Assembly: GCA_946406115.1 (NCBI GenBank)
Contig: OX291557.1
Location: forward strand, 15,098,501 to 15,162,500
Length of the DNA stretch: 64,000 nt
Reading direction: 5' to 3'
Source: Apoda limacodes
Lineage: Eukaryota; Arthropoda; Insecta; Lepidoptera; Limacodidae
Shown here: positions 1,371-44,319 of the stretch, piece by piece
Layout: every line of letters begins with the position of its first letter
Position numbering within the stretch: the first letter of the stretch is position 1
The notes under the pieces: model-generated
Seen by the model: only the letters and a program-made list of their open reading frames with translations
Databases searched by the model: none
Told to the model about the DNA's origin: nothing
Made by a program: the position numbers and the translations under genes

Positions 1371-1529
1371 TCAATAGAGAGGTATGGGGTCGTGCGGCGA
1401 AGCCCTGCGCAGTGATATCACAAGCAGACGCGGTGGAGACGCAGCCAACTTAACAAAGCATTGTTCCAGGAGAATACGCCACCGGAGCGAAGCTCTTTCC
1501 TCGCTGGACATCACTTTCATCTGTTGGCA
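1371..1529 (-). CDS. MEIOB: MEIOB exon 9 with stop codon
   Basis: Residues 371-422, from CQQMKVMSSEERASLRWRIL to ASPHDPIPLY, then TGA at 1373-1371. The helix with WRILLEQC and the strand LLVISLRR fit the end of an RPA-like OB fold. Acceptor TTACCAG. Third positions are GC-rich, as in exon 7. Confidence 0.86.
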   Translation of the reverse strand, partial: CQQMKVMSSEERASLRWRILLEQCFVKLAASPPRLLVISLRRASPHDPIPLY

Positions 1530-4500
1530 CTGGTAACAGGTATTTTAAATATATTGATAAATTAAGTAAACAACATAAAAAAATTTAAAAAATACTAGCC
1601 AGTGCGCGTATTTTTAACAGAAAATATTTTTTGTCGATGTAGGTCTTCAGATTTATTCCCAGAAGGATGTTGCCAGTGGACAGCCACTTTTTACAAACTT
1701 GGCCAACTGCGAAATGATAATACATCTACAGAAAACCTTTTCTGATTAAATTTTTCGAACTGGCTAGTATTTTTTAAAATGTTATTTGGTTGTTCTTGCA
1801 CTATCTTAGTTAAAGCAAAGTATAATATAATTTAATAGTGGATCACCTCGGCCGTTTAACAAAGCAAAAATGAGCTCTGTAGAGACACAGAATATACCAG
1901 ATATATATGTTGTATGAGCAATGATTATGCGAATTATAGGGATTTACATATATATAATAACATGTGGTTGCATTGAATAACAATCAATGGTATCGCCCCT
2001 GGTATGGTATGGTGGAGTCGCAGCTGTTATAATAATGGTAATTATTATATGTATACACTCAAAAAATATGAGGCTAGCAGAGTACTGTTTTTTGGTATGT
2101 TAAAGGAACTTTGTTACTCATAAATGTTTTTTCTACTAATTCAGCGGCCGTCAATTCGTTACTCATAACAAACCCAAAACCGTTAAGGACAGTAACTACA
2201 TTGCACTGCTACAAATTACAAACAAACTGTTAAATCACATAGCTAACTCTAATTTGCTAGATTAGCTTATTATAGTAGTCTAATATAGAGAATCAAATAG
2301 GTTGTATGAGCAGATTCAGAACAACTAAACGAACCGATTTGACCGTTGTTTAGAATAAACATTTGATGTAAATTAGTTTAACAGACAAGACTGTTGAATG
2401 AGCAGACACATTTATTTAGAATTACTAGCATATTAGCATTCTGATCACCTGAAGTAGCAGAACAGAGCATGTTTCATTGACAGACTAATTAGCAACCGTA
2501 GCTGGGCAGAGTTTGTTTTATTAGCAAGAGGCTGCAGTAGTAATATATTTACTGTTTAACCAGACTGTCACTAGAGGGTGCTACTTGTATTTTAAAACAC
2601 GCTATGGCAAGTTTTAGCAGGGCAGTGATATAGAACGCATATTAATATACGAGTGTGTCTAGTGAAGATTGCGTTTAGTGTATAATAGATGCATTTAAGC
2701 TATTGAAACATCTTATTATACGCTAAATAGACAGCAAGTCCAATCGCTAGTATCAGTCCAGCGTCTCTGCAGAAACGCTAACAGAGCTTTGTTTTTGCTA
2801 CTCAAAGTAAATTGTATATATATCTATAGTTAAAGTTACAAATAAAAGTTGTACTTATACCTATAACGTCGTTTTCTCTCCTGGTTAACACTTAAAAATT
2901 AATTGACTAAATAAGTTACAGTGGCAGAGCAGAATTTGTTTCATTGATGGAGTAAATTAGCTGCTGCAGCAGACCAGACTCTTTCGTTGACAGTTAGAAA
3001 TTGATTAACGTAGCAGGTCACAATTTATTGACTTAACGAAGTAACATTTCTTAAATTTACAGACTAATGTTTGTTAAAAATTTAACAACATTGACTGTCA
3101 GTTTAGGCAATTAATTGTTTAATGTATTAATAAATTTGTGTCTGCTACTAATTACTACTTGAATCTGCTGTCTGTATATTGGCAGAGTTAGTATGTTGTG
3201 AACAACTGAAAGATGGTTAAATATTTTTTGAGTGTATGCTACTAGCTTTGGCCCGCGGCTGTCCCCGCACAGAGTCGCAGTAGCAATTTCTAACTGAACC
3301 ACTTATATACTTATTTTAACGAGATAAAAGTAGTCTGTTGTCTGTCCCTCCAGTTTCGTGTGCAAAAATCAGATTACCCCGTTGATACTTTGCGATGAAA
3401 TCGATCTTGATCGATACAAAAGAATTCTATATCTTTCTGCGTTCGCCAAAAATCGGATCAATAGGTTGCTTCGACCCGAAGCTAAGGAATAATACAGACT
3501 TTCGCATTTCTATATTTTTATCACACTAAGGTGGCAAACAAGTTAACGGTCCCGGACCCGGTGATGGTAAGCGGTCACCGTAGCCTATGGACGCATGCAA
3601 CAGCACGGGTATTACTCGCGAGTTGCCCACCCTTTAAAAATCTAATCACTTCTTAAAGATATATTAAATATTAGTTTGCGTTGCTTGGTAATGAAATGAG
3701 TTGTGGACTAGATCGAACTGACTATATACATCCATACCAAGCCAATTGGACCTGCTTGTCTTTTCTATTTTGCAAAATGTCAGTTGTGTTGTAGTAAAGA
3801 AATAATACTTAGTCAAATTTAGAGCCTAAGTCTTCATTTCGAGTAAGTACTGGGGGTAAGGGATGGGGGAGGTCCCCCAACTAGGTTAAGAAAACCAAAA
3901 ACTTACGGAGTACTTAAGAGTGTCTTCGAGCACATTGATCGGAAGTCGCGCGTTTAACTCTCCAGTGTGGTCCGCGAACTTCACTCGCAGTTCTTCCGCG
4001 TTTTCACTGCACATTAAATGTTCTCGTAAGCACCGAGAGCAACAGCTTAAGCAACATTTTTTATGCGCCTATATACATACACCTCCCCACCGGCCTCCGG
4101 CGAGGGCGATTTCCTGCCCTACCCTCAACCATGGGCGTGGGTGATGTCGCCCATAGTTCAGTCACGCGGGTCCATCCCTGGTTGTGGACTCTATTTAACG
4201 TATCACAATATTTTCTTTTAGTAAATTAAGCCAGTCAGTAGTGTGAACGAAACAACGTTTTTGAGAAATTTGAAAACAGCCTAAATTTGCCTCAGAACAA
4301 AACAAGATGCAAAGTGAATAGCCAGTGGCGGATCCACGAGGGGTTTTGAGTGTAACAAACAAAAAATCATTAGTACCATATTGATTATCAAATATAATAT
4401 GGTTAAAATCACAAGGTATCAAAAATATTCCTACAAAATTAAAAAAAAAAGTTCTGAATCCGCTACTGTGTGAATATCTGATTACTTGGTATTAAGAAGT

Positions 4501-7500
4501 TCGTCGAGGTCTATGCGTGTGAGCAGCGCGTGCAGCGAGGCGCAGAATGGCGCGCCGGTCGCGAGTCGGTCCCGCACCTGCGCCACGGACGCAGCACACG
4601 CGCGTTCACCGCTCCATGCGCTCCATGCTGCCACCTCCCCACCACCTGGTATACATGATCGTGTCATTCATAAGCTCGACAGTTTTATACTACTCAGATG
4701 ACAAACAAGCATACAGTACAATGCATTTGATGTTGGGCGGTTACCGTTAGCCTATGGACTCTTGCAACACCCTAGTGAATAAGTATTGCTCGTGTTGCCA
4801 ACCTTTTGAAAGTCTAATATAACCTTCTTGAAGAACCTCATATTGTCCTAAAAAAACTCGACAAGGACCACATTCCGCAACCTGATCGTTTGTGGAAAAA
4901 AGTTATTTTTGAAATGCTGATGTATGTTTGATATGAAATAAATGATTATTATCAATATGCTATTTTAAAGTGGTTTTTATGTAGGTCATGTGACTCCATG
5001 CCTGTAGAGGACGGATACTATCGCATCTATAAAAGTTGCGTTAGTCAGCTGAAACTGTACACAAAACATTCTAGTAATCGGTGAAATTGTCACATATAAT
5101 AATAGAAAAACCCCGCAGTTTTATCACAAAACCTATTTCTGTGGGTACTGTCGATCGGGGTAAAAGTATTCTTTGACCCTATAGCTACCTCGGTGCTAAA
5201 AATCAAGCTACTTTCTATGCATTGTTCACGGACGTGCGAAAAATTAATCCGCAATATAATTAATATCTGGATTATCATAAAATTTAGAAAAAAAATAAAA
5301 TAAAATAACGCTTAAATTTTAAAAATTATTTTCTTAAAAATGAACTAACGGGTATTGGCTTGATTGCGAGTGTACAACCTCAGTGCTTCTGCGTCAGCGG
5401 TGTGCGGCTGATGAGTGACAACAGTTCTGCAGCAAATCTGCACTTTGGCTGCGTGACTGCGCCAAGATACTCTACCATCCGCTATGAATAAAACGCTATC
5501 TAATGGACGCCACTCTTCTGCCCTGATCAAATATAAGGTAGGCACGTTATTAAGAAGTGTTATTTTCGGTTAGAGGAGGACATTCGAACATAGACATATG
5601 TTGTACTTCGTAAGGACCGGGCCAACAGCGTGTTCAAGTGGACGTAGCTTTTTCATCCGGTGGTTTTAATGACGTACGGGATTCATTCAGTATACGCAAG
5701 TTTATAATGTTCCACGTTGTTTTCAAAACTAATAATAGAAAGAGCTATTTTTTTTGGCCTTCCATATCTTTACTGTTTAGGTATATCAATCGATTCAAAT
5801 TAAATATACATATTTTCGATCCAAAAGACCATAACAGCAAGTACCTATACATAAATAATCAGCTATACCTAAACTTCGAAGTTCCTTTAATTTCACTTTT
5901 TATTCAGTTTAAAGCTGTTTCATTCACAATATTACTGCAACTTTAAAAAAAATCGTATTGGCAGAATCTTATGAAACATAAAACACAGACCTTTCAATTT
6001 TTTTAGCCAAAATACAAAGTGATATTCAGAGAGCTTTGAAGTTTATAGCAAAATACATAGGTAAATGTCGCTCGCTGGGTAAATGTATATTTTTAAACAG
6101 ACTGCACTTTTCTTTGCATCTCCTTTAAAGTCACCTTTGAATCGTGTCAATGTCGAAAATATCTAAGATGAGGGGGGCCGGAGTGGTGTTGTCCACTATT
6201 TCAACGCTCCGTAACGACATATCAGCTCCTGTAACCATAATATCTATAAGTGAATTATTTTTTATATTATTTCTCTTACTAAAGTGGCTTTAATAATTCG
6301 GTTTGTCACCTTCACCGAGTGAATGTAGGTATTTTCCTATTCAGTCAAGACAGATACAAGATATCAAACACACAATGGCATAGCTAGCAGGGGTAGGAGG
6401 TATCTTAACTGAACATTTCATTGGCTTTAATTAAAGATATAATTATTTGGTGAAACCATGATTTTGGCGCAAAAAAAATATTTGTATCTAAGCAAAATTA
6501 TTTTTTGTTTCAAACGAAGAAAAATAATATGTTGCATATATAAATGTATTTATTTTATACAAGAACATTAATTGTCTCAGGGTAATTAAAGTTGGGTAAA
6601 AAAAAATTTGTTGATAAGGAAAGAAGTTTATCAATTCGATTGATTTTTTTTCTAGGAAATAATATTGCTTTTTGTGAACAAAAACTGTCCAAAATGGTTA
6701 GATTTCGGAACTGAATGCAAATTATTTTGGTGGAATAGAACTAGGAAACAATTTTTTGCCCGTGCTACCTATAATTTTATGTTTTTAAATGAAATTGCAA
6801 TTTACTTACCTGTTTTAGTCTTTATGGTTTTAGCAGGTTTCACCGTCTTAACAACCACCAACAGATCCACATATAGATTAGAACTTTGTTCTGAAAATAA
6901 AATTTGAATTCGTTGTTAGGTACTTTTCAAAATATGGGCCAAGTTCGTGTCGTACCTATCTTATATGCCACAGAGTACATTATATATCTATATACGTGTT
7001 TATTTTCGTATTATATTATATATTCTATTTAGGGTTCTGTACTCGAAGGTTCCAAACGGAGCCCTATTTTTGTCTCACGTGTCCGTCCGTCGTCTGTCAC
7101 ACAGGTTTTACAGCCAAACGGTTGGAGCTAGTCTTCAAATAAGCATCTTATTGTATCTTATTATAGGTATGTATAATTAGCATCTTGTTGACCCAAAGCC
7201 ATACAAATGTCAAAAATAATTTAAATGTTTATCCTATAAATATTATAAATGCGAAATTTTGTTTGTCTGTCTATCTGTTTGTTACTTCATAACTCTGTTA
7301 TACATGGATTGATTTAGATGAAATTTGTTATGGAGATAGTTTGAGTCCCGAGGAAGGACATAGGTACCTAGTGAGTTTTTATCCCGAAAAATTCAGAAGT
7401 TTCCGCAGGTATAACTATAAACGAGCTTAAACGAACTTTTTCATTAGTATAAGTAATTAAGGAGTTGTGAATGGCCGCGGGTAAAATTCATTTATTTCCA

Positions 7501-10500
7501 GCTATCCCATTAATATTATAAATGCGAAAGTTTCGATGTTTGGAATAGGACATAGGCTATTTTCACCCCGGAAAATTAAATAGTTCCCACAGGAGTATCT
7601 TTATAACCGAATTCCACGAACGAACCATAGCTGCAGCTATAGCTTGCTATATAGCAAACTTCTTTAGTATATTCAAGGTGATGGCGTAAAAATCCCATAA
7701 ACAAATTTAGGGCGGGCAGAGCCGCGGGCAGAAGCTAGTGTAGTGTGCCATACAGCTTAAGTATGGTGCGAACAAAAAATTGGATCTACCCCATCTAGTG
7801 GGGTATCGTTGTTTAGAGCTAGTCTACTACAAATAGTTTTTTGTTTTAAAAAAAATCGAAAACAAAGGAATGAAAAGCAATTTTAAAAAAGATTACTGCT
7901 TTTTTTAAAAAAAAAAAACCGAAGAATTCATCCAATCAACCCATTGACTTATTACCTTCAAATTTGGTGATAATGTTTATTATTATGTATAACAAATACT
8001 AATTACTAACAAAAAAACAATATTGGGAAATGTGTTTTTACTATTACAAGCAAAAATATTTTGCGGTCAAATGTATAGCTAGAAGGGATTCACTGGGAAG
8101 GGATACTACTCAGGGGCACAGGGGTCCGGCAAAAATCACGTAATATTACAAGGGGGGAGGGTAGGTCGATTAAGTTATCACGTGTATTTACGAGAAATTT
8201 TAAGATTTTTTGTAGGTACTAAAAATACACGTGATTTTGAGAATTATTGCGGATATCTGTTAAACTTGCAAAACAAATTTGGTTTAAAGCCTATTTACCC
8301 ATAAAGCTCTATTTTCGTAATGTTTTCTAGATTTCTAGAACAGGCACTTAGCCGTTTTTAGAGTTCCGTCCGTACCCAAAGGGTAGTAACGGGACCCTAA
8401 AAAAATTACATCGCTATCTGTTTGTCCGTCTGTCACCAGGTTGTATCTCATGAACCGTGATAGTTAGACAGTTTAAATTTTCACAGATGATCAATTTCTG
8501 TTGCCGCTATAACAACAAATACTAAAAAACAGAATAAAATAAATATTTAAGGGGGCTCCCATACAACAAACGTGATGTTTTTGCTCGATCTTACCTGGAA
8601 GTTTGAGCACCTCTGCAATTCCATAGTAACCAGCAGCAGGCTTAGAAGGTATATGAAGTAGTGGTAAGTACATTGCAAATGTGTCACCGCTGTGGATAGT
8701 TACGTCGGAGGCACCTTCATTCAACGAGAGAAAGAACGGAGAAGAAACCTAGGATAAATAAAGAATACTACTGTAATCGAATTGCACAGTAATGGTAAGT
8801 TCAACAATGTATCTATATATCTACATTTTCAGGTCTCCATATGCACTCACGTCTGGCTACTCACCACATAATCCGCATGAATATGTAGTGGGTGGCACTA
8901 GAGTCATGTGCGCGAGATAACTGTACGCGCCGAGAAAGTGTACGCAGTGACCATAGCCGCGATCCTTTTTAATGCTACGCACATGGGTTTTGTAGATGAT
9001 TTAGGAGATTTCCTTAAGACGACGATATACCCTAATATCCCAAAACAGTCTATCTTACTTTTTCTAGGAGATTGAAGAATTTGTACACACTACAAATCAC
9101 AGAAAACTTAAAAGGTTAGGGAAAGAACTAATTTAAAAGAAAAATCAAATCGAATTAAAAGAAAATCATAAATTAAGCAAATAATTCTTAAATAATTACA
9201 AAAAAAAGCTAAAAATTAAGTTTACTTGGCGATCTCGATATTTTGTCAGGTAACCTAATTATTTTTCAATTGATTAGTTAGTTATTGTTTCATATGAAAA
9301 GAAAAACGGCTGGATTTTTTATATAAAGGCTAGTTATTTTTTAATAATTTAAAAACATGAAAAAAACAGCTTAAAACGGAAGCGCTCCACGCGTAAGCGA
9401 CATAAAACGTGACGTGCGAAGTTAAACCTTAAGATGAGTTTAGCTTATTTATACTTGACTTGCTCAACTAGCGTCTATCGTCCTCTTAAGGTGCTGAAAC
9501 AGGTGACGCGTTTAGTTGAATTTGTGGTGTTAATAAAAAGCGCTCAAGTGCGAGTTGGACTCGCGCGCCGAGAGGGTTCCATACTTTAAAAAATTCTAAA
9601 AAGTTTTTTTAATTACCTATAAACAGTTCATTTTGTAAGTTGGTATAAGCACTACGCCTAATTAATATTAAAAGATTTACTACGTGATTTTGAGAATTCA
9701 CATCGGTTTTCTTATACTTAGTAAAGAACTATTTTGTGTATTTTCAAAATATTAGGCTTAGTAGTTTCGGAGATAAGGGGGAAAGGTAAAATTTCATCTA
9801 TTTTCCTCAATTGATTTATTTTAGAATACATCCTCCAGCATGCCTAGTTTCCATTTGATATAACATATTTTTTTTTTAATTATAAGACCCCCATATTCAA
9901 ATTCATTCATTTGCTACACGTCCATGTTTGGGTCACAACAACCCATATGCATACCCAATTTGTTTGGTAACGGGACCCTAACAATTGCCACATGTATCTC
10001 TTGAGAACGGCTCGATCGATTTCGTTGATTTATTTTTGTTGTTGTCGTAATTGTCAGTACTTTCTTTCATAAAAGCGTTTTGTATTAAAGAAGTTTTAGA
10101 AGAGCGACGCCGGGCACGAACAACTAGTATAAAATATCTTTTTATGTATGTATAAAAAAAAACATTTCTGAACTTCTTACTGACTCATCAACACTTGGCT
10201 AGAAAATTCAAATTTTGAACATAAATTCCTTTCATGACGTATAAGAACGTATGGGACGGGTGAATCTTGACTGCGCGGGTAATACCGTGCATATTATTTC
10301 TTCTATTTATGACATTTACTTTTATTGGATTTGAAAATTACCTGCGGCCTAAAAGTTTCAGTTGCTCCACTTTTTACGCATATTTTCGGCGAGGATACTT
10401 CAACTGAAAGAAAAACCTAATTCAATTTAAATATAATGATAACCTACGTATTATAACTATACTAGCTTTTCCAGCGGCTCCGCCCGTGCTATTCGGCCTC

Positions 10501-11044
10501 GTTACTAATTTGTTATAGTTTTTCCTGCGGTAGCACGTACTTGTTACAACCTCTTTGGCGGGAGCTTTTTGGACGTGAAGTATGGTCAAACAAAGTCACT
10601 TTCGCATTTAGAATATTAGTAGGTATGGATAAAGTCCCACGCCGTGTCTGTCTATGTACTAATTTATATATACTAATTTTAGAAACTACCGTGGGAACTT
10701 TTGAATACCGCATGGGTATTGCCCCATGCCAGAAACCCCGCGAAGGCTGCGCCGCTGATTCTTATGGTAAGTAGTATATATTAAAGGGGATAATTACCAA
10801 CATCGCCAACCAAAAACCTTTCGTAAAATGTAATCACAAAGTACTCCGAGCCCCAAACATCAGCATTTATAGTATCTACATCAGAATCTCTGAAGGTGAA
10901 TGAAGTTACTCCTCTGGAGTCACCATTTTTCTTTTTACTGCCAATAGTTCTAGGACTATTTTTAGCTATTATAATGCCGACAATAAGAGCATTTTTTAAA
11001 TTAATATTTAAGTTATTTAATTTAACTCTTTGAACTCCCGCCAT
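1371..11044 (-). CDS. MEIOB: Meiosis-specific OB-fold protein MEIOB (hold'em homologue), complete, 9 exons
   Basis: CDS joins, on the minus strand, 11044-10798, 10403-10342, 8748-8595, 6890-6810, 6228-6135, 5522-5350, 4645-4486, 4045-3907 and 1529-1371: 1,269 nt, 422 aa (human MEIOB is about 440). All eight junctions keep frame and have GT and AG ends. Family knowledge: MEIOB is an RPA1-like ssDNA-binding protein that works with SPATA22 in meiotic recombination. Seen: an N-terminal OB fold with the FTFRDS and VGDV landmarks; a second with the HIPSKPAAGYYG segment, like the human HLPVKESHDYYS stretch; and a C-terminal OB fold with LRVKFADHTGELNARL, like the human LTDHTGTL block, preceded by a cysteine cluster (CCSRC, then a single C after seven residues). 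Human MEIOB has two CxxC pairs there, so the zinc ribbon looks reduced. Introns carry several MITEs. Exons 1-2 exist twice because of the tandem duplication. Confidence 0.93.
1585..1777. mobile_element. MITE with 19-bp perfect terminal inverted repeats
   Basis: Ends 1585-1603 and 1759-1777 are exact reverse complements (ttaaaaaatactagccagt). Total length 193 bp with no coding capacity. It lies in the last MEIOB intron, 55 bp upstream of the exon 9 acceptor on the transcribed strand. The flanks are AT-rich, so I cannot fix the target duplication. Confidence 0.75.
1778..3527. other. MEIOB intron 8, decayed repeat region
   Basis: No coding exon seen. Loosely repeated pieces of about 50 bp recur near 2450, 2503, 2920, 2972 and 3017 (variants of 'gcagagcagagtttgtttcattgacag'). 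A 'ttgtatgagca' motif occurs at about 1910 and 2302. This may be an old LTR or satellite remnant; the copies are too diverged to name. Confidence 0.35.
3528..3657 (-). repeat. Non-LTR retrotransposon 3'-end fragment
   Basis: The signature 'ggtaagcggtcaccgtagcc' and following bases match the LINE tail at 22940-23089 in reverse. 5'-truncated. Confidence 0.85.
3907..4045 (-). CDS. MEIOB: MEIOB exon 8 (cysteine cluster and C-terminal OB strands)
   Basis: Residues 324-370: CCSRCLREHLMC, then ENAEELRVKFADHTGELNAR. Acceptor GCTTAAG, donor TCC|GTAAGT, phase 0. The acceptor was chosen because it is the only AG that keeps frame with exon 7; a T-rich tract is lacking. Confidence 0.88.
4322..4469. mobile_element. 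hAT-type MITE with 8-bp target duplication (7/8 match)
   Basis: The terminal repeats read ccagtggcggatcc (left) and, reverse-complemented, acagtagcggattc (right). They are flanked by gtgaatag (4314-4321) and gtgaatat (4470-4477), as expected for an 8-bp hAT target duplication. It is inserted in MEIOB intron 7 about 16 bp past the exon 7 splice site. Confidence 0.75.
4486..4645 (-). CDS. MEIOB: MEIOB exon 7
   Basis: Residues 271-323 (GGEVAAWSAWSGERACAASV to LTRIDLDELLNT). Unusually GC-rich at third codon positions for this window. Acceptor TACCAG with a poor pyrimidine tract; donor CAA|GTAATC is weak. Without splicing, the frame would end at a TAA straddling this donor (4484-4482), so the last-exon alternative was weighed. 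It was rejected because exons 8 and 9 continue the homology in phase. Confidence 0.85.
4729..4856 (-). repeat. Non-LTR retrotransposon 3'-end fragment
   Basis: A diverged copy of the recurring LINE tail ('cggttaccgttagcctatgg'...'cttgaagaacctcatattgt') in MEIOB intron 6. No open frame remains. Confidence 0.75.
5350..5522 (-). CDS. MEIOB: MEIOB exon 6
   Basis: Residues 213-270, AEEWRPLDSVLFIADGRVSW through LRLYTRNQANT. It aligns with the human AQSWMPRETVIFASDVRI block. Acceptor GATCAG, donor CCC|GTTAGT, phase 1. Confidence 0.92.
6135..6228 (-). CDS. MEIOB: MEIOB exon 5
   Basis: Residues 182-212 (GADMSLRSVEIVDNTTPAPL, then ILDIFDIDTIQ). Acceptor GTTACAG, donor AAG|GTGACT, phase 2. It fits the human strand pair CEVRLYDETESSFAMTCWD. 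The donor is weaker than the others. Confidence 0.88.
6810..6890 (-). CDS. MEIOB: MEIOB exon 4
   Basis: An 81-nt exon coding for residues 155-181 (QSSNLYVDLLVVVKTVKPAK and on). Acceptor TTATTTTCAG, donor ACAG|GTAAGT. It was found by following the required phase from exon 3. It matches the human beta-strand that reads NVLAAVKSVG. Confidence 0.88.
7232..7738. repeat. Lepidopteran-type 'cccgcgg...ctag' dispersed element
   Basis: Runs from 'tattataaatgcgaaattttg' to 'gccgcgggcagaagctag' at 7738, the usual two ends of a repeat common in moths and butterflies. A second internal start ('aatattataaatgcgaaag') near 7512 suggests two nested or tandem copies. In MEIOB intron 3. Confidence 0.65.
8337..8590. 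repeat. 'gggaccctaaaaa' / 'gggggctcccatac' dispersed repeat
   Basis: Contains 'gtagtaacgggaccctaaaa' and 'aagggggctcccatacaaca', landmarks of a dispersed family that also appears at 44205-44320. It reaches to within a few bases of the MEIOB exon 3 donor (8594). Confidence 0.6.
8595..8748 (-). CDS. MEIOB: MEIOB exon 3
   Basis: Residues 104-154, including SLNEGASDVTIHSGDTF and LLHIPSKPAAGYYGIAEVL, which parallels the human stretch with IHLPVKESHDYYSLGDIV. Acceptor TCCTAG, donor CAG|GTAAGA, phase 1. Confidence 0.92.
9530..9605 (+). repeat. 'gtgcgagttggactcgcgcg' dispersed repeat fragment
   Basis: Member of the same family as copies at about 21045, 28798, 36950 and 44280, recognised by 'caagtgcgagt(t/c)ggactcgcgc' followed by a 'gggttcc' block. 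It lies in MEIOB intron 2. Confidence 0.6.
10342..10403 (-). CDS. MEIOB: MEIOB exon 2 (working copy)
   Basis: A 62-nt exon coding for residues 83-103 (VEVSSPKICV... to FRPQ). Acceptor TTTCTTTCAG, donor CAG|GTAATT. It matches the human segment after VGDC, where the chain leaves the first OB fold. Confidence 0.88.
10465..10632. repeat. 'ctagcttttccagcgg...aatattagtagg' dispersed element, copy 1
   Basis: Begins 'ctagcttttccagcggctcc' and ends near 'tttcgcatttagaatattag', the paired ends of the same common element as 7232-7738, reversed. It lies in MEIOB intron 1 and recurs at 15810-15977 in the duplicate. Short open frames here on both strands are incidental. Confidence 0.6.
10798..11044 (-). 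CDS. MEIOB: MEIOB exon 1 (working copy)
   Basis: Codes for residues 1-82, from MAGVQRVKLNNLNINLKN to YERFLVGDV, the first OB fold. Donor G|GTAATT, phase 1. The ATG is the first in a run of open frame, and the peptide aligns with the human protein from the MANLKVIG segment on. Confidence 0.92.
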
Positions 11045-11614
11045 TTTTCAATTTTTACACTTTTTGTTTTCTCCTTGGGACAGGCTAAGATCTAAGACTG
11101 TGCTGCCTGCCTCGTCTTCAGTATTTTTTTTATAACAGTTTTCTGGGAGAAGGATTTCAGTTTTGTTTTCTTAATAAATCTTCATACACCCATAGCCGTA
11201 AAAAAACGACAAAAAAAGACGATATTCTGATTTGCAGCTATCGCGAAGTGCTGTGACGAGGACGATTTTTGGATTACTCATCGGGCGCCGGGTTGTTGAA
11301 GTATGACTGCGGGACGTCCCCTGGAAATCGTAGCATCTAACAAGCAACGTAAGTCAGAGTCAGACAATAAAACACAGTCAGAGTGGTAACTTCCGTTTAC
11401 AAATTTATTTTTCCGTTTACAAATTTATGCTTTTTTTTAATGTAAGTTTAGTAAATTTTTTAACTATGATTATATAGTTCCGCTAATTAAGTTTATTTCG
11501 TGTGAATAGGTATAATATTGTGAAGTAGGTACTTCATCAGGTGAGTAATATAAAATACCGCCATAGCTAATTTATATAATAAAAATAGATTTTTTAATAG
11601 ACAACCGTTGCGCG

Positions 11615-11870
11615 TTGTATGAATTTCTGTTTTAAAACAGTTTTGACTTCAAAGGCCGTAATTTTTTTTTACCGACATAAATTCAGTTCAAGAGGAAATT
11701 ACCTACTGACGAGTACCTACTACATATGTATTGGGAGGATCAGATTGTATGAATTTCTGTTTTAAAACAGTTTTGACTTCAAAGGCCGTAATTTTTTTTT
11801 ACCGACATAAATTCAGTTCAACAGGAAATTACCTACTGACGAGTACCTACTACATATGTATTGGAAGGAT
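11615..11870. repeat. Two tandem 130-bp units
   Basis: Unit 1 (11615-11744) and unit 2 (11745-11870) both start 'ttgtatgaatttctgtttta' and end 'tgtattggRaggatcag'. They differ by a few bases, so this duplication is older than the 5.3-kb one that contains it. The same pair occurs at 16960-17215. Confidence 0.9.
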
Positions 11871-11876
11871 CAGGCA

Positions 11877-11919
11877 TGTATTGGGAGGATCAGATCACGT
11901 GCCTGATCCTCCCAATACA
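11877..11919. repeat. 17-bp-arm palindrome next to the 130-bp repeat
   Basis: Arms tgtattgggaggatcag (11877-11893) and ctgatcctcccaataca (11903-11919) are exact reverse complements around a 9-base loop. Bases after it ('tatgtagtaggta') also pair with the end of unit 2, so the whole cluster can fold back. Duplicated at 17222-17264. Confidence 0.85.
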
Positions 11920-14169
11920 TATGTAGTAGGTAATCGAACTTGAACTGAATCTATGTCGGTTAATTTAGAGAAGTAATCCTCAGGAATGTCTGATTTAGGC
12001 TTTGATGTCCTGTATAACCTCTTTGAAACTGCATGTTTTAAAAATAAAATAACGATAATAGAATATCTATAAATTGTGAATCCTTTTTGCAGAAAATCTT
12101 TCATTTATAAATTCACATTCAGATATCTGCAATAATTCTTATTCTACGGATCGAAAGTTGAAGAACTGACACGCACTTGGTCGGTTCTTTTTTGTATTTT
12201 TATGTTCATAATTTTTGAGTTATTTTCGATGATTACAAGGCAAAAAATCTGAAATAATTTAGTTAGATACAAGTAAATAACTTAATAGCGTTAGGTCCAA
12301 ATTAATATTATATGAATTGAAAAATGTTGTAAGTTTTTTGATTTGGGTATATTTAAGTAATTGACCTGTTTGTTGGCATATGAAAAGTTAGAAAGACGGA
12401 GGACATAGGTTAGGTACTTTTTGTACTCATTGGGAGTTCCCTTCCCTCCCCTTTTTTATGTTGATGGATAGGAAGGAATCCCTCGGCGGCGATGACAGAA
12501 TTTTTCTTGGGTGAAGCAGCGGGCAAAAAGCTAGGTAATCAATATTTAAAAAAACAGGGTTGAGTAATTCTTCTGTGTACATGTGTAAGTCTCTAGCCTC
12601 CTCGTAAACGGCTGCGCTGATTTCGATGTCATTTTTTGAGTATGTTTGAGTGGATGGTTTAGATTCACCAATATTGAACCCTGCACTGCGGTTGGGTTAT
12701 TAAAAAACAATAGGTATAAAATTGAATGTGGGTGAAACCAACGGGAACATCTATCTTAAGATTGGCTATCGCAGATAGATAAAAGCTGCTTATTTTGGTT
12801 TCGTACTTTTTAGTAGGTATAGGTATGTACTCGTAGAATCATACACTTAGATTAGGTACTTTACCGTCTGTTTTCATGACTCATATCCTTTTTCCTCGTT
12901 GTAGCCAGCTGGTTAAAGTAAGTACCTACTCACTCATACATATTTGTAGCTCAAGTAAAGGATATATGGGTAATATTTGGAAACTAGCTATGCTCGCTGC
13001 TTCGTCCGTGCCAAATTTGGTTATGGCCGCGTATATAAGTTTATGTCTTTGCTTTTACATCGCTTGTGTTATGACATCATCAGTTTACTCCGTTGCCACG
13101 TGAAGGAAAAAGTATTTCTGTGGCAACTCTCAATCGGGATTTTTTTTATGACCAGCACAGGGATAGTTAAAGAGCTTAGCCATGTGCCAAAAATGTGGTT
13201 AACTGGAAGCTCCGTTGCGACGTGAAGCAATAACAAATTGACTTGACTTTTGAATTTATATATTACTTAGGATTAGGAATTAGGATGATCATCCGATCAT
13301 AAAACCATTTTTGCGATTAATATAGTAAAAAAGGTCCTGTATCGGCCTGTCTATCGCGCGCCCAGCAGCTTTGAGCGATTGGGCTTGCCCCATTGTATGA
13401 GTCCACGTTTTAGCAGCTTAGAGTTCATGTATGAAAGAAAAGACGCACTGGTCAAAGACCTTCATCTTCAGTCTGTACGGTGTAGGTGAATAAAAGAATA
13501 GACGAAGCTTGTCTAGCTGCCCCTTCCCTAATAGCTAGATGCTTCTATTGGCTTCATATTCATAGTTCTTCCGGCCTAGTTGGATTGTCTGTCCAAGGTA
13601 CAGATAATCCTGGACCTACCCAAGTAAGGTAGGTACTAGTAACGAAACCGGCTTTGGCATAACGTGTTGGAGAACGAAACATGAGTTTTGTCTCGTTCAA
13701 ATTCATGCCAAGCAATAATTACGGGAAACAGGTCTGATTACCATTTTGCACTATATTGGTTATCGTGAAAAATGGACAGACCTGTCCTGAACGTGACGTA
13801 CCTATATATAAATATACATAATTATACCCAAGGAGTACATTTTTGAAGCCTTAAACCTATTCTATCTATATACAATCTAACAGTAGTATGTGTTAAGATG
13901 GTTTAGTTCTCTAAAGATGGTTTTAGTTTAGAGTAAATGTGCTGACAGGGTAAATTTCCTCAAGTCAAAATTTTAAAACCTCTTTTATACCTTTTACCTT
14001 GATAAAGTGTTAATTGTCTGTAGGTCAACGCTTATAAAATCTTATTTCAGGTCCTTTTCTTTTCTTTCTTTTTTTTCTAGATCAACTTGGTTGTCTTTAG
14101 CTAAATTGTTCTATTACAACTTTTTTAAGTATTAACTATCTAAACATTTACTACTAAGTCTTTTTTTTA

Positions 14170-14405
14170 TAACACTAAGGTGGCAAACAAGCTTAGGAGC
14201 CGCCTGATGGTAAGCGGTCACCGTAGCCTATACACGCTTGCAACACCAGGGGTATCACTTGCGCGTTGCCGACCCCTTCAAAAATCTTATAACTTCTTTC
14301 CATTCTTTCAAAGAACCCCATTCTGTAGTCCTTAGAAAAAACCTTGGCAGGGAGCTCATTCCACAACCCAAGCGTTCGCGGGAGGAAGTTTCTCTAAAAC
14401 CGCAC
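14170..14405 (-). repeat. Non-LTR retrotransposon 3'-end fragment (duplication copy 1)
   Basis: Reverse-oriented LINE tail from 'cactaaggtggcaaacaagc' through the 'ttggcagggagctcattcca' segment. 5'-truncated; it sits between MEIOB and the copy 2 join. Confidence 0.85.
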
Positions 14406-15686
14406 TGTGCATAAGAATGAAGTCTTTATTTGAAATCTTTTTGTAGATATACTAAATTATTTATAGCTAAATTGTTTTAGACATATTCAATAAAGTTAAT
14501 TAATTCTCTTTAAATAATGGTTCACAAGTTTATTCTAGACATAATCCTTAAGAAGATAACTTTCAGTGTTATTATCTATTGATTTTACACATGAAGTGCG
14601 TATCCAGTGCTTTTTATTTAAAAAAATGCAGTCATCATTGTGATGTAACAACAAAAACTGTAAGGTTCTCAGATATTTTTTTTATGTGTGCTACATGGCA
14701 TTGCTTCTTGCCAAATTTCATGATTCTAGGTCAACGGGAAGTACCCCATAGGTTTTGATTTATTTGTGTCCTAATATTCGACAAATATAACCGTATTTTG
14801 GGCATATTCTTTTATTGCATTGCTTTGAAACTTGATTTTTTTACAACTTTAAATGACTTCAGTATTTGATATTAATTTCAACTTGATGCCTCCACGCATT
14901 TTTTAGTAAAAGGAGTAAAAATATGTTATAACTACAAATAAATAGATTTCGAATTTTTTCCTATATTTGTGAATTTGGGACCATGCTTCGTGTGTAATTT
15001 CATGATTCTTTTCGATTTTGTTTTTTTATTATGTCTCCCTTACTGCTGTATTTTTTTACATTAGTAGTTTATGCAAGTAGTTTAATATAGAACAAATATT
15101 AAGATAGACCGTTTTGTTATATTAGGGCAGCTGCTATAAGGAGCTGATTGCAAAATTGTACTGTAAACATCTAGTGCGAGTACCTACCTATATATCCATT
15201 TGATATAACATATTTTTTTTTTAATTATAAGACCCCCATATTCAAATTCATTCATTTGCTACACGTCCATGTTTGGGTCACAACAACCCATATGCATACC
15301 CAATTTGTTTGGTAACGGGACCCTAACAATTGCCACATGTATCTCTTGAGAACGGCTCGATCGATTTCGTTGATTTATTTTTGTTGTTGTCGTAATTGTC
15401 AGTACTTTCTTTCATAAAAGCGTTTTGTATTAAAGAAGTTTTAGAAGAGCGACGCCGGGCACGAACAACTAGTATAAAATATCTTTTTATGTATGTATAA
15501 AAAAAAACATTTCTGAACTTCTTACTGACTCATCAACACTTGGCTAGAAAATTCAAATTTTGAACATAAATTCCTTTCATGACGTATAAGAACGTATGGG
15601 ACGGGTGAATCTTGACTGCGCGGGTAATACCGTGCATATTATTTCTTCTATTTATGACATTTACTTTTATTGGATTTGAAAATTAC

Positions 15687-16389
15687 CTGCGGCCTAAAAG
15701 TTTCAGTTGCTCCACTTTTTACGCATATTTTCGGCGAGGATACTTCAACTGAAAGAAAAACCTAATTCAATTTAAATATAATGATAACCTACGTATTATA
15801 ACTATACTAGCTTTTCCAGCGGCTCCGCCCGTGCTATTCGGCCTCGTTACTAATTTGTTATAGTTTTTCCTGCGGTAGCACGTACTTGTTACAACCTCTT
15901 TGGCGGGAGCTTTTTGGACGTGAAGTATGGTCAAACAAAGTCACTTTCGCATTTAGAATATTAGTAGGTATGGATAAAGTCCCACGCCGTGTCTGTCTAT
16001 GTACTAATTTATATATACTAATTTTAGAAACTACCGTGGGAACTTTTGAATACCGCATGGGTATTGCCCCATGCCAGAAGCCCCGCGAAGGCTGCGCCGC
16101 TGATTCTTATGGTAAGTAGTATATATTAAAGGGGATAATTACCAACATCGCCAACCAAAAACCTTTCGTAAAATGTAATCACAAAGTACTCCGAGCCCCA
16201 AACATCAGCATTTATAGTATCTACATCAGAATCTCTGAAGGTGAATGAAGTTACTCCTCTGGAGTCACCATTTTTCTTTTTACTGCCAATAGTTCTAGGA
16301 CTATTTTTAGCTATTATAATGCCGACAATAAGAGCATTTTTTAAATTAATATTTAAGTTATTTAATTTAACTCTTTGAACTCCCGCCAT
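15687..16389 (-). pseudogene. Second copy of MEIOB exons 1 and 2
   Basis: Exon 1 (16389-16143) and exon 2 (15748-15687) are base-for-base copies of those at 11044-10798 and 10403-10342, with intact ATG, donor and acceptor. No exon 3 lies between this copy and copy 1. A transcript starting here would have to splice past or into the downstream exons, either skipping to 8748 or including exons 1-2 twice. It is therefore an extra 5' end or promoter rather than a full gene. If the tandem duplication is an assembly artefact, this copy is not real. Confidence 0.85.
15810..15977. repeat. 'ctagcttttccagcgg...' dispersed element, copy 2
   Basis: Duplicate of 10465-10632, carried along by the 5.3-kb duplication. 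Confidence 0.6.
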
Positions 16390-16959
16390 TTTTCAATTTT
16401 TACACTTTTTGTTTTCTCCTTGGGACAGGCTAAGATCTAAGACTGTGCTGCCTGCCTCGTCTTCAGTATTTTTTTTATAACAGTTTTCTGGGAGAAGGAT
16501 TTCAGTTTTGTTTTCTTAATAAATCTTCATACACCCATAGCCGTAAAAAAACGACAAAAAAAGACGATATTCTGATTTGCAGCTATCGCGAAGTGCTGTG
16601 ACGAGGACGATTTTTGGATTACTCATCGGGCGCCGGGTTGTTGAAGTATGACTGCGGGACGTCCCCTGGAAATCGTAGCATCTAACAAGCAACGTAAGTC
16701 AGAGTCAGACAATAAAACACAGTCAGAGTGGTAACTTCCGTTTACAAATTTATTTTTCCGTTTACAAATTTATGCTTTTTTTTAATGTAAGTTTAGTAAA
16801 TTTTTTAACTATGATTATATAGTTCCGCTAATTAAGTTTATTTCGTGTGAATAGGTATAATATTGTGAAGTAGGTACTTCATCAGGTGAGTAATATAAAA
16901 TACCGCCATAGCTAATTTATATAATAAAAATAGATTTTTTAATAGACAACCGTTGCGCG

Positions 16960-17264
16960 TTGTATGAATTTCTGTTTTAAAACAGTTTTGACTTCAAAGG
17001 CCGTAATTTTTTTTTACCGACATAAATTCAGTTCAAGAGGAAATTACCTACTGACGAGTACCTACTACATATGTATTGGGAGGATCAGATTGTATGAATT
17101 TCTGTTTTAAAACAGTTTTGACTTCAAAGGCCGTAATTTTTTTTTACCGACATAAATTCAGTTCAACAGGAAATTACCTACTGACGAGTACCTACTACAT
17201 ATGTATTGGAAGGATCAGGCATGTATTGGGAGGATCAGATCACGTGCCTGATCCTCCCAATACA
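16960..17264. repeat. 130-bp tandem pair and palindrome, duplication copy 2
   Basis: Offset exactly +5,345 from 11615-11919, with the same sequence features. Confidence 0.9.
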
Positions 17265-19514
17265 TATGTAGTAGGTAATCGAACTTGAACTGAATCTATG
17301 TCGGTTAATTTAGAGAAGTAATCCTCAGGAATGTCTGATTTAGGCTTTGATGTCCTATATAACCTCTTTGAAACTGCATGTTTTAAAAATAAAATAACGA
17401 TAATAGAATATCTATAAATTGTGAATCCTTTTTGCAGAAAATCTTTCATTTATAAATTCACATTCAGATATCTGCAATAATTCTTATTCTACGGATCGAA
17501 AGTTGAAGAACTGACACGCACTTGGTCGGTTCTTTTTTGTATTTTTATGTTCATAATTTTTGAGTTATTTTCGATGATTACAAGGCAAAAAATCTGAAAT
17601 AATTTAGTTAGATACAAGTAAATAACTTAATAGCGTTAGGTCCAAATTAATATTATATGAATTGAAAAATGTTGTAAGTTTTTTGATTTGGGTATATTTA
17701 AGTAATTGACCTGTTTGTTGGCATATGAAAAGTTAGAAAGACGGAGGACATAGGTTAGGTACTTTTTGTACTCATTGGGAGTTCCCTTCCCTCCCCTTTT
17801 TTATGTTGATGGATAGGAAGGAATCCCTCGGCGGCGATGACAGAATTTTTCTTGGGTGAAGCAGCGGGCAAAAAGCTAGGTAATCAATATTTAAAAAAAC
17901 AGGGTTGAGTAATTCTTCTGTGTACATGTGTAAGTCTCTAGCCTCCTCGTAAACGGCTGCGCTGATTTCGATGTCATTTTTTGAGTATGTTTGAGTGGAT
18001 GGTTTAGATTCACCAATATTGAACCCTGCACTGCGGTTGGGTTATTAAAAAACAATAGGTATAAAATTGAATGTGGGTGAAACCAACGGGAACATCTATC
18101 TTAAGATTGGCTATCGCAGATAGATAAAAGCTGCTTATTTTGGTTTCGTACTTTTTAGTAGGTATAGGTATGTACTCGTAGAATCATACACTTAGATTAG
18201 GTACTTTACCGTCTGTTTTCATGACTCATATCCTTTTTCCTCGTTGTAGCCAGCTGGTTAAAGTAAGTACCTACTCACTCATACATATTTGTAGCTCAAG
18301 TAAAGGATATATGGGTAATATTTGGAAACTAGCTATGCTCGCTGCTTCGTCCGTGCCAAATTTGGTTATGGCCGCGTATATAAGTTTATGTCTTTGCTTT
18401 TACATCGCTTGTGTTATGACATCATCAGTTTACTCCGTTGCCACGTGAAGGAAAAAGTATTTCTGTGGCAACTCTCAATCGGGATTTTTTTTATGACCAG
18501 CACAGGGATAGTTAAAGAGCTTAGCCATGTGCCAAAAATGTGGTTAACTGGAAGCTCCGTTGCGACGTGAAGCAATAACAAATTGACTTGACTTTTGAAT
18601 TTATATATTACTTAGGATTAGGAATTAGGATGATCATCCGATCATAAAACCATTTTTGCGATTAATATAGTAAAAAAGGTCCTGTATCGGCCTGTCTATC
18701 GCGCGCCCAGCAGCTTTGAGCGATTGGGCTTGCCCCATTGTAAGAGTCCACGTTTTAGCAGCTTAGAGTTCATGTATGAAAGAAAAGACGCACTGGTCAA
18801 AGACCTTCATCTTCAGTCTGTACGGTGTAGGTGAATAAAAGAATAGACGAAGCTTGTCTAGCTGCCCCTTCCCTAATAGCTAGATGCTTCTATTGGCTTC
18901 ATATTCATAGTTCTTCCGGCCTAGTTGGATTGTCTGTCCAAGGTACAGATAATCCTGGACCTACCCAAGTAAGGTAGGTACTAGTAACGAAACCGGCTTT
19001 GGCATAACGTGTTGGAGAACGAAACATGAGTTTTGTCTCGTTCAAATTCATGCCAAGCAATAATTACGGGAAACAGGTCTGATTACCATTTTGCACTATA
19101 TTGGTTATCGTGAAAAATGGACAGACCTGTCCTGAACGTGACGTACCTATATATAAATATACATAATTATACCCAAGGAGTACATTTTTGAAGCCTTAAA
19201 CCTATTCTATCTATATACAATCTAACAGTAGTATGTGTTAAGATGGTTTAGTTCTCTAAAGATGGTTTTAGTTTAGAGTAAATGTGCTGACAGGGTAAAT
19301 TTCCTCAAGTCAAAATTTTAAAACCTCTTTTATACCTTTTACCTTGATAAAGTGTTAATTGTCTGTAGGTCAACGCTTATAAAATCTTATTTCAGGTCCT
19401 TTTCTTTTCTTTCTTTTTTTTCTAGATCAACTTGGTTGTCTTTAGCTAAATTGTTCTATTACAACTTTTTTAAGTATTAACTATCTAAACATTTACTACT
19501 AAGTCTTTTTTTTA

Positions 19515-19750
19515 TAACACTAAGGTGGCAAACAAGCTTAGGAGCCGCCTGATGGTAAGCGGTCACCGTAGCCTATACACGCTTGCAACACCAGGGGTAT
19601 CACTTGCGCGTTGCCGACCCCTTCAAAAATCTTATAACTTCTTTCCATTCTTTCAAAGAACCCCATTCTGTAGTCCTTAGAAAAAACCTTGGCAGGGAGC
19701 TCATTCCACAACCCAAGCGTTCGCGGGAGGAAGTTTCTCTAAAACCGCAC
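19515..19750 (-). repeat. Non-LTR retrotransposon 3'-end fragment (duplication copy 2)
   Basis: Copy of the fragment at 14170-14405, at the duplication offset. Confidence 0.85.
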
Positions 19751-20564
19751 TGTGCATAAGAATGAAGTCTTTATTTGAAATCTTTTTGTAGATATACTAA
19801 ATTATTTATAGCTAAATTGTTTTAGACATATTCAATAAAGTTAATTAATTCTCTTTAAATAATGGTTCACAAGTTTATTCTAGACATAATCCTTAAGAAG
19901 ATAACTTTCAGTGTTATTATCTATTGATTTTACACATGAAGTGCGTATCCAGTGCTTTTTATTTAAAAAAATGCAGTCATCATTGTGATGTAACAACAAA
20001 AACTGTAAGGTTCTCAGATATTTTTTTTATGTGTGCTACATGGCATTGCTTCTTGCCAAATTTCATGATTCTAGGTCAACGGGAAGTACCCCATAGGTTT
20101 TGATTTATTTGTGTCCTAATATTCGACAAATATAACCGTATTTTGGGCATATTCTTTTATTGCATTGCTTTGAAACTTGATTTTTTTACAACTTTAAATG
20201 ACTTCAGTATTTGATATTAATTTCAACTTGATGCCTCCACGCATTTTTTAGTAAAAGGAGTAAAAATATGTTATAACTACAAATAAATAGATTTCGAATT
20301 TTTTCCTATATTTGTGAATTTGGGACCATGCTTCGTGTGTAATTTCATGATTCTTTTCGATTTTGTTTTTTTATTATGTCTCCCTTACTGCTGTATTTTT
20401 TTACATTAGTAGTTTATGCAAGTAGTTTAATATAGAACAAATATTAAGATAGACCGTTTTGTTATATTAGGGCAGCTGCTATAAGGAGCTGATTGCAAAA
20501 TTGTACTGTAAACATCTAGTGCGAGTACCTACCTATATATTGATATGTTTTTAGGTATCGCAAT

Positions 20565-20653
20565 ATGGAGAAAACGGACAATGTTTTGTATGATACAAAA
20601 ACAGACAACTTGTATCCTGCTCTTTTCCAGGCTTTTGCCATAATTTTCTGTGG
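20565..20653 (+). CDS. GPR155: GPR155 exon 1 (start codon)
   Basis: Codes for MEKTDNVLYDTKTDNLYPAL and on to FCG, the first membrane segment of the PIN-like domain. Donor TGG|GTAATG, phase 2, fits exon 2. The start was chosen because the peptide ends in the family's 'CGY(V/I)AGR' block across the junction. Confidence 0.9.
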
Positions 20654-44204: not shown

Positions 44205-44318
44205 AAACATTTAAGGGGGGCTCCCATACCACAAACGTGATTTTTTTGCCGTTTTTATTGACAATGGGACGGAACCCTTCGTGCGCGAGTCCGACTCGCA
44301 CTTGGCCGGTTTTTTTAT
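44205..44318 (-). repeat. 'ccggccaagtgcgagtcgga' dispersed repeat
   Basis: The best-preserved copy of this family here: read on the minus strand it starts 'aaccggccaagtgcgagtcg' and ends near 'gtatgggagccccccttaaa'. Confidence 0.75.
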
Positions 44319-44319
44319 A

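What the first reader, a model, noticed from the sequence alone, without database searches (positions are those of the whole stretch)
9851..20540. Near-identical 5.3-kb tandem duplication gives MEIOB a second promoter and first two exons
Seen: 5,345 bp repeated head to tail with only three differences found. The unit includes MEIOB exons 1-2 and ends 14 bp before the acceptor preceding the GPR155 ATG. Inference: either a very young duplication that could give two MEIOB start sites or exon-repeat transcripts, or two haplotypes joined by the assembler. Both copies keep an intact ATG and splice sites.
Basis: partly seen in the sequence, partly recalled or inferred. Interest (0 to 1): 0.75.

Follow-up and report, generated by a model that had tools for sequence, protein, structure and literature searches.

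The report
Young tandem repeat of MEIOB start
In a moth or butterfly genome, a 5.3-kilobase stretch holding the start of a meiosis gene (MEIOB) and the DNA between it and its neighbour is present twice in a row, nearly identical; it is most likely an ordinary, very recent duplication that leaves both genes intact, though sequencing reads are needed to rule out an assembly error.

Summary
Bases 9851-15195 are repeated head to tail at 15196-20540 with 3 substitutions, no indels and no N in the window. The DNA is lepidopteran: the minus-strand gene is MEIOB (Pfam OB_MEIOB_N, E 2e-45; 50 homologues). The plus-strand gene is GPR155/LYCHOS. Copy A carries exons 1-2 of the full-length MEIOB gene, which runs down to 1374. 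Copy B is a second 5' fragment upstream of it, in the same orientation. Both genes keep 4.15 kb of native upstream DNA, so neither looks broken. Exon 2 is 62 nt, so joining exon 2 of copy B to exon 2 of copy A shifts frame and stops after nine codons: an exon-repeat message would be dead, and skipping one exon 2 gives the unchanged protein. The gap-free join and 1-bp junction overlap favour a real young duplication (about 0.1 million generations) over joined haplotypes. Near-identity alone does not exclude the latter; reads, RNA and the rest of the assembly could not be examined. The size is near the median of Heliconius duplications. Low interest.

The parts
9851..15195 (.). Repeat unit, copy A (attached to the full-length MEIOB gene)
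   Evidence: self-BLASTN, 3 mismatches and 0 gaps against copy B
15196..20540 (.). Repeat unit, copy B (attached to GPR155)
   Evidence: self-BLASTN
15195..15196 (.). Gap-free A/B join; in-register overlap of 1 bp (T) with the outer flanks
10798..11044 (-). MEIOB coding exon 1, copy A (ATG at 11044)
10342..10403 (-). MEIOB exon 2, copy A, 62 nt (not a multiple of 3)
16143..16389 (-). MEIOB coding exon 1, copy B
15687..15748 (-). MEIOB exon 2, copy B
8595..8748 (-). MEIOB exon 3, outside the repeat, single copy
1374..6891 (-). Remaining six MEIOB coding segments, single copy in the window, ending ...DPIPLY as in relatives
   Evidence: tblastn with 4 lepidopteran MEIOB proteins; exact splice ends only partly resolved
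20555..20653 (+). First coding exon of GPR155/LYCHOS (ATG at 20565), 14 nt beyond copy B
   Evidence: sequence; gene identity (the matched parts lie mostly in the next exon, 26030-26506)
14161..14408 (.). Repeat-family segment inside copy A (twin at 19506-19753), related to segments at 353-554, 22858-23097 and others; probably transposon-derived
   Evidence: origin inferred

Best explanation
This is a recent, simple head-to-tail tandem duplication of 5,345 bp in a lepidopteran. It formed by end joining or a replication error with almost no microhomology at the junction, rather than by recombination between repeats. It spans the head-to-head interval between MEIOB (leftward) and GPR155 (rightward), plus MEIOB exons 1-2. 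Because the breakpoints lie in MEIOB intron 2 and just upstream of the first GPR155 coding exon, both genes stay whole: copy A plus exons 3 onward is a complete MEIOB with 4,151 bp of its own upstream DNA, and copy B gives GPR155 the same interval. What is extra is a MEIOB 5' fragment (copy B, exons 1-2 and upstream DNA) lying upstream of the real gene. If it is transcribed, it would splice mostly into exon 2A and yield a frameshifted message, or, by skipping one exon 2, the normal protein. Expected effect: neutral or nearly so, perhaps still segregating. Shown: structure, gene identities, reading frames. Inferred: physical reality, origin, expression, fitness effect.
For: Exact structure with 3 substitutions, 0 indels and 0 N, although the unit holds 10 homopolymer runs of 8 or more. 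In-register junction overlap is only 1 bp. MEIOB: Pfam OB_MEIOB_N 153.9 bits; top six homologues 65-68% identical over 92-95% of the query; single-copy remainder present. GPR155: 12 of 12 PDB sequences listed are LYCHOS/GPR155 constructs, both with the joined query and with one exon read straight from the window (best E 1.6e-25). Both genes keep 4,151 bp of upstream DNA. Frame: e1B-e2B-e2A-e3 stops at residue 113. Gaps between copies are listed as a main mark of false duplications (PMC9516828, passages); none is here. Duplications in Heliconius have a median length of 5,693 bp (744 duplications, PMC5176112, passages), close to this one. Three differences give about 97,000 generations (20,000-283,000) at 2.9e-9 and 68,000 (14,000-200,000) at 4.1e-9 per site per generation, without gene conversion (rates from PMC6672018, and PMC10048334).
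Against: No reads, depth, RNA or second individual were available, so physical reality is not shown. Near-identity is also what a mis-assembled stretch from a low-diversity or inbred animal would give: at diversity 0.001-0.002, two simulated haplotypes show 3 or fewer differences in 8-49% of runs. Whether the assembly holds other such repeats could not be tested (genome search did not complete). A 7-bp word, TTGATAT, is shared within 12 bp of both breakpoints (2.8% of 3,000 random position pairs do as well or better), so a microhomology role is possible, but it is weak, out of register and was noticed after the fact. The two outer flanks also carry a short piece of one repeat family in the same orientation (9535-9580 and 21032-21087, both matching 44265-44319; 44 bp at 75% when compared directly). 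These lie 270 and about 490 bp outside the breakpoints and not at the junction, so they do not fit simple exchange between repeats, but they are there.
Confidence: 0.78

Rival explanations
1. Assembly artefact: two alleles (or one allele twice) of a single-copy 5.3-kb interval were laid end to end in the contig.
For: Such errors remain even in curated long-read assemblies (0.3-2.3% of the sequence of three VGP genomes, PMC9516828, table passage). Simulated haplotypes show 3 or fewer differences with probability 0.03-0.16 at diversity 0.004, and more often at lower diversity.
Against: No gap between the copies, whereas gaps are listed as a main mark of false duplications. The main class of false duplication is of relatively divergent haplotypes; here divergence is 0.056%, against neutral diversity of 0.44-4.3% at 4-fold sites in 38 butterflies (PMC6672018, section 6). 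With 1 bp of junction overlap an overlap-based assembler would need a read that really crosses the join (inference).
Confidence: 0.18
2. An older duplication kept near-identical by gene conversion or unequal exchange between the copies.
For: Tandem copies in direct orientation can be homogenised (general knowledge). Three differences give a minimum age only.
Against: No graded or patchy identity is visible, only three scattered differences over 5.3 kb, which is weak evidence. No relative's DNA was available to test it.
Confidence: 0.04
3. A functional dual-promoter allele (a special case of a real duplication, so its odds are not additional): copy B is an active second MEIOB promoter, kept because it alters MEIOB dosage in male meiosis.
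For: Copy B keeps ATG, donor and acceptor sites and 200 bp upstream, identical to copy A. [quoted passage not shown]
Against: No RNA data. The first modelled acceptor met after exon 2B is exon 2A, which shifts frame. In the same Drosophila study whole-gene duplications rarely changed expression.
Confidence: 0.06

Closest known systems
Duplications of Heliconius melpomene and H. cydno (PMC5176112)
   Same: Lepidoptera; size class (744 duplications, 228 bp to 207,510 bp, median 5,693 bp; passages seen).
   Different: Those were called from resequencing of 34 butterflies (start of abstract); here only one assembled sequence is seen, so polymorphism is not known.
Partial tandem duplications, 'dual promoter genes' and recruited non-coding sequence of Drosophila (PMC4503668, PMC5460883)
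   Same: Breakpoints inside or beside genes, so that a 5' gene end is copied (passages seen).
   Different: Here the extra 5' end lies upstream of the same intact gene, same orientation, and the repeat of exon 2 is out of frame; no expression data. I recall the exact definition of 'dual promoter' from Rogers et al. 2014, which is not held, and did not check it.
False duplications in genome assemblies (PMC9516828)
   Same: Two near-identical copies in one scaffold.
   Different: No gap between copies, lower divergence than typical butterfly alleles, single-base junction overlap.

Membership tests
Recent tandem segmental duplication | Two adjacent copies, same orientation, high identity over kilobases | tested here: met
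   5,345 bp, 99.94%, no gaps
Recent tandem segmental duplication | Physically present in the genome (reads cross the join; raised depth) | not testable with these tools
   No reads held; genome search unanswered
False (assembly) duplication | Gap between the duplicated copies | tested here: not met
   0 N in the window; the feature is listed in PMC9516828. It is a common mark, not a strict requirement
False (assembly) duplication | Haploid or lower read depth; single-copy k-mers | not testable with these tools
   No reads
False (assembly) duplication | Divergence like that between alleles of the species | tested here: inconclusive
   0.056% is below the 0.44-4.3% neutral diversity of 38 butterflies, but the species' own diversity is unknown and low-diversity species allow it
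Dual-promoter / partial 5' gene duplication | Extra copy of upstream DNA, start codon and first exons with intact splice sites | tested here: met
   (the transcription start site is not mapped)
Dual-promoter / partial 5' gene duplication | Transcription from the extra 5' end | not testable with these tools
   No RNA data
Exon-repeat gene with an altered protein | Repeated exon leaves the reading frame open | tested here: not met
   62-nt exon 2; e1B-e2B-e2A-e3 stops at residue 113

The most novel reading that the evidence does not exclude
The duplication is a young, still segregating allele that adds a second working MEIOB promoter. Competition between productive splicing (exon 2B to 3, or 1B to 2A) and poison splicing (2B to 2A) tunes MEIOB level, and with it crossover formation, in male meiosis, the only sex with crossing over in Lepidoptera.
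Probability: 0.04. Interest if true: 0.5.

Novelty: new member of a known kind. Interest (0 to 1): 0.18.

Why it matters
If real, it is a clean example of a very young duplication over a divergent promoter interval that leaves both genes whole, and it gives exact, testable splice junctions. If an artefact, it is a warning against reading near-identical tandem copies in a single assembly as biology. Either way no known rule is broken.

Tried and rejected
Recombination between flanking repeats as the origin: the outer flanks share only a 44-bp, 75% identical piece of one repeat family in the same orientation as their best match (E 0.012 in a direct 2-kb by 2-kb comparison; both pieces also match 44265-44319). 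It lies 270 and about 490 bp outside the breakpoints, so the junction is not inside it; rejected as the main origin. Microhomology origin: TTGATAT lies near both breakpoints, but 2.8% of 3,000 random position pairs do as well or better and it is out of register; kept as weak. Exclusion of the haplotype explanation by divergence alone: rejected as too strong after simulation. Exon 2 to exon 1 junction as the main product: not favoured, since exon 1 as modelled has no known acceptor, although candidates at 11142 and 11073 have a pyrimidine count equal to that of the real exon 2 acceptor (11 of 15 each), so inclusion of exon 1A is not excluded.

MEIOB in Lepidoptera in print: one search (33 papers hold both terms, 10 listed) where, from their titles, the 10 seem to match words such as meiobenthos (my inference); no claim of absence is built on it. 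A search with MEIOB, SPATA22, meiotic recombination and insect (86 papers, 6 listed) and one for partial duplication with exon repetition (4 listed) gave no close precedent among the titles listed. PDB search of the MEIOB N-terminal part found 0 matches.

Full report
What is there. The window (64,000 bases, 0 N; 36% GC) contains one long direct repeat: 9851-15195 and 15196-20540, 5,345 bp each, abutting, with three substitutions and no indels. BLAST extends the match by one base because a T precedes each copy, so the breakpoint is uncertain by 1 bp. Each copy also holds a smaller 130-bp tandem repeat (11615-11873 and its twin) and a repeat-family segment (14161-14408 and its twin).

Genes. On the minus strand, exons at 10798-11044, 10342-10403 and 8595-8748 join in frame to a 154-aa product that matches Pfam OB_MEIOB_N with 153.9 bits against a cut-off of 27. 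A protein search returned 50 hits; 50 of 50 bear names of genera that I recognise as Lepidoptera (Helicoverpa, Loxostege, Pectinophora, Bombyx, Plutella, Papilio and others), and many are named meiosis-specific with OB domain-containing protein. The top six are 65-68% identical, so they do not name the species. tblastn with four of these proteins places nine coding segments between 11044 and 1374, ending in DPIPLY as do 6 of the 7 aligned relatives. Only the first two segments (exons 1 and 2) are found a second time, at 16389-16144 and 15749-15684; three further hits elsewhere in the window are weak (E 0.19-0.70). The alignment with seven relatives has no gap at the exon 1/2 and 2/3 joins. On the plus strand, a coding exon starts at 20555 with ATG at 20565. 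Joined by hand with later exons, it matches LYCHOS/GPR155 entries of the PDB (12 of 12 listed, best E 1.2e-55); the next exon alone, read straight from the window, does so too (12 of 12, best E 1.6e-25) and matches Pfam Mem_trans.

Geometry and consequence. The two genes stand head to head. The duplicated piece runs from MEIOB intron 2 across exons 2 and 1 and the intergenic DNA to just short of the first GPR155 coding exon. Each gene therefore keeps an unbroken copy with 4,151 bp of the native interval: MEIOB through copy A, GPR155 through copy B. The surplus is a MEIOB 5' fragment in copy B, upstream of the whole gene and in the same orientation, and, if GPR155 has a 5' untranslated exon in the unit (not known), a surplus of that in copy A without its acceptor.

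A transcript starting in copy B would meet the exon 2A acceptor first (5,283-nt intron) and the exon 3 acceptor later (6,938 nt). Exon 2 is 62 nt; the order 1B-2B-2A-3 shifts frame and stops at residue 113, after nine codons of exon 2A. 1B-2B-3 or 1B-2A-3 restores the normal protein, which is identical because neither copied coding exon carries a difference. So the duplication does not make a longer MEIOB by repeating exon 2; at most it adds transcripts, productive or not. Candidate acceptors at 11142 and 11073, upstream of exon 1A, leave room for inclusion of exon 1A. These are predictions from sequence; no RNA was seen.

Origin. The junction has 1 bp of in-register overlap. TTGATAT occurs within 12 bp of both breakpoints, out of register; 2.8% of 3,000 random position pairs do as well or better. 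The outer flanks share one short repeat-family piece in the same orientation, 270 and about 490 bp outside the breakpoints. None of this points to exchange between repeats at the breakpoints; end joining or a replication error is the simplest reading (inference).

Real or artefact. For a real event: no gap at the join; 1 bp of overlap, so no shared sequence could by itself have led an assembler astray (inference); no indel although the unit holds 10 homopolymer runs of 8 or more; and a size near the Heliconius median of 5,693 bp for 744 duplications (PMC5176112, passages). Published false duplications come mainly from relatively divergent haplotypes, and gaps between the copies are listed among their main marks (PMC9516828, passages, abstract passage included). 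Against, or not decisive: a two-haplotype coalescent simulation with recombination gives 3 or fewer differences in 5,345 bp with probability 0.32-0.49 at diversity 0.001, 0.08-0.30 at 0.002, 0.03-0.16 at 0.004, 0.005-0.07 at 0.01, 0.004-0.035 at 0.02 and 0-0.022 at 0.03, the range being over recombination/mutation ratios 5, 1 and 0; indels were not modelled. Butterflies lie at 0.0044-0.0428 at 4-fold sites (38 species, PMC6672018, section 6 read); Leptidea at 0.0011-0.0038 over all sites (same paper, passage). So low divergence favours a duplication by a moderate factor only, and less if the animal was inbred. I put a real duplication, young or old, at about 0.8.

Age. Three differences, Poisson range 0.6-8.8, give about 97,000 generations (20,000-283,000) at 2.9e-9 and 68,000 (14,000-200,000) at 4.1e-9 (rates from PMC6672018, section 6, and PMC10048334, passages, abstract passage included). 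This assumes no gene conversion. At such an age in a species with an effective size of 1e5 to 1e6, as given for butterflies in PMC6672018, the allele may still be polymorphic (inference).

Comparison. [quoted passage not shown] It differs in nothing fundamental. That crossing over is lacking in female meiosis of Lepidoptera is stated in PMC6672018 (passage); [quoted passage not shown]

Limits.

Noticed in passing
window 21437-23464: Large inverted repeat (three arm pairs of 87, 272 and 160 nt, 98-100% complementary) enclosing most of a 337-aa reverse-transcriptase-like open frame (22027-23040, RVT_1 E 4e-6, 27.1 bits, below the cut-off of 29.6), downstream of the first GPR155 coding exon.
   Followed up: partly
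window 24334-24771: Foldback palindrome: two 160-nt arms, 97% complementary, 118 nt apart.
   Followed up: no
window 35130-36626: Pieces of a hAT-type transposase on the plus strand: Dimer_Tnp_hAT E 2.5e-9 at 36324-36626, DUF4371-like stretch at 35523-36323 (18.5 bits, below the cut-off of 32.1), no match at 35130-35408.
   Followed up: partly
window 11615-11873 and 16960-17218: A 130-bp unit repeated twice in tandem at 98% identity inside each 5.3-kb copy, a smaller tandem duplication carried along and so presumably older.
   Followed up: no
window 9535-9580, 21032-21087 and 44265-44319: Short pieces of one repeat family, two of them in the same orientation just outside the two ends of the duplication.
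   Followed up: partly
window 27821-27893: One Rfam tRNA match (35.4 bits, cut-off 29) on the plus strand within the GPR155 region; could be a real tRNA gene or a tRNA-derived repeat.
   Followed up: no
proteins P0033 and P0041 (not in the window): Two MEIOB protein clusters, both labelled Papilio machaon and with longest contigs of different length, are only 93% identical to each other, so MEIOB may have a second full copy in that butterfly, or one label is wrong.
   Followed up: partly
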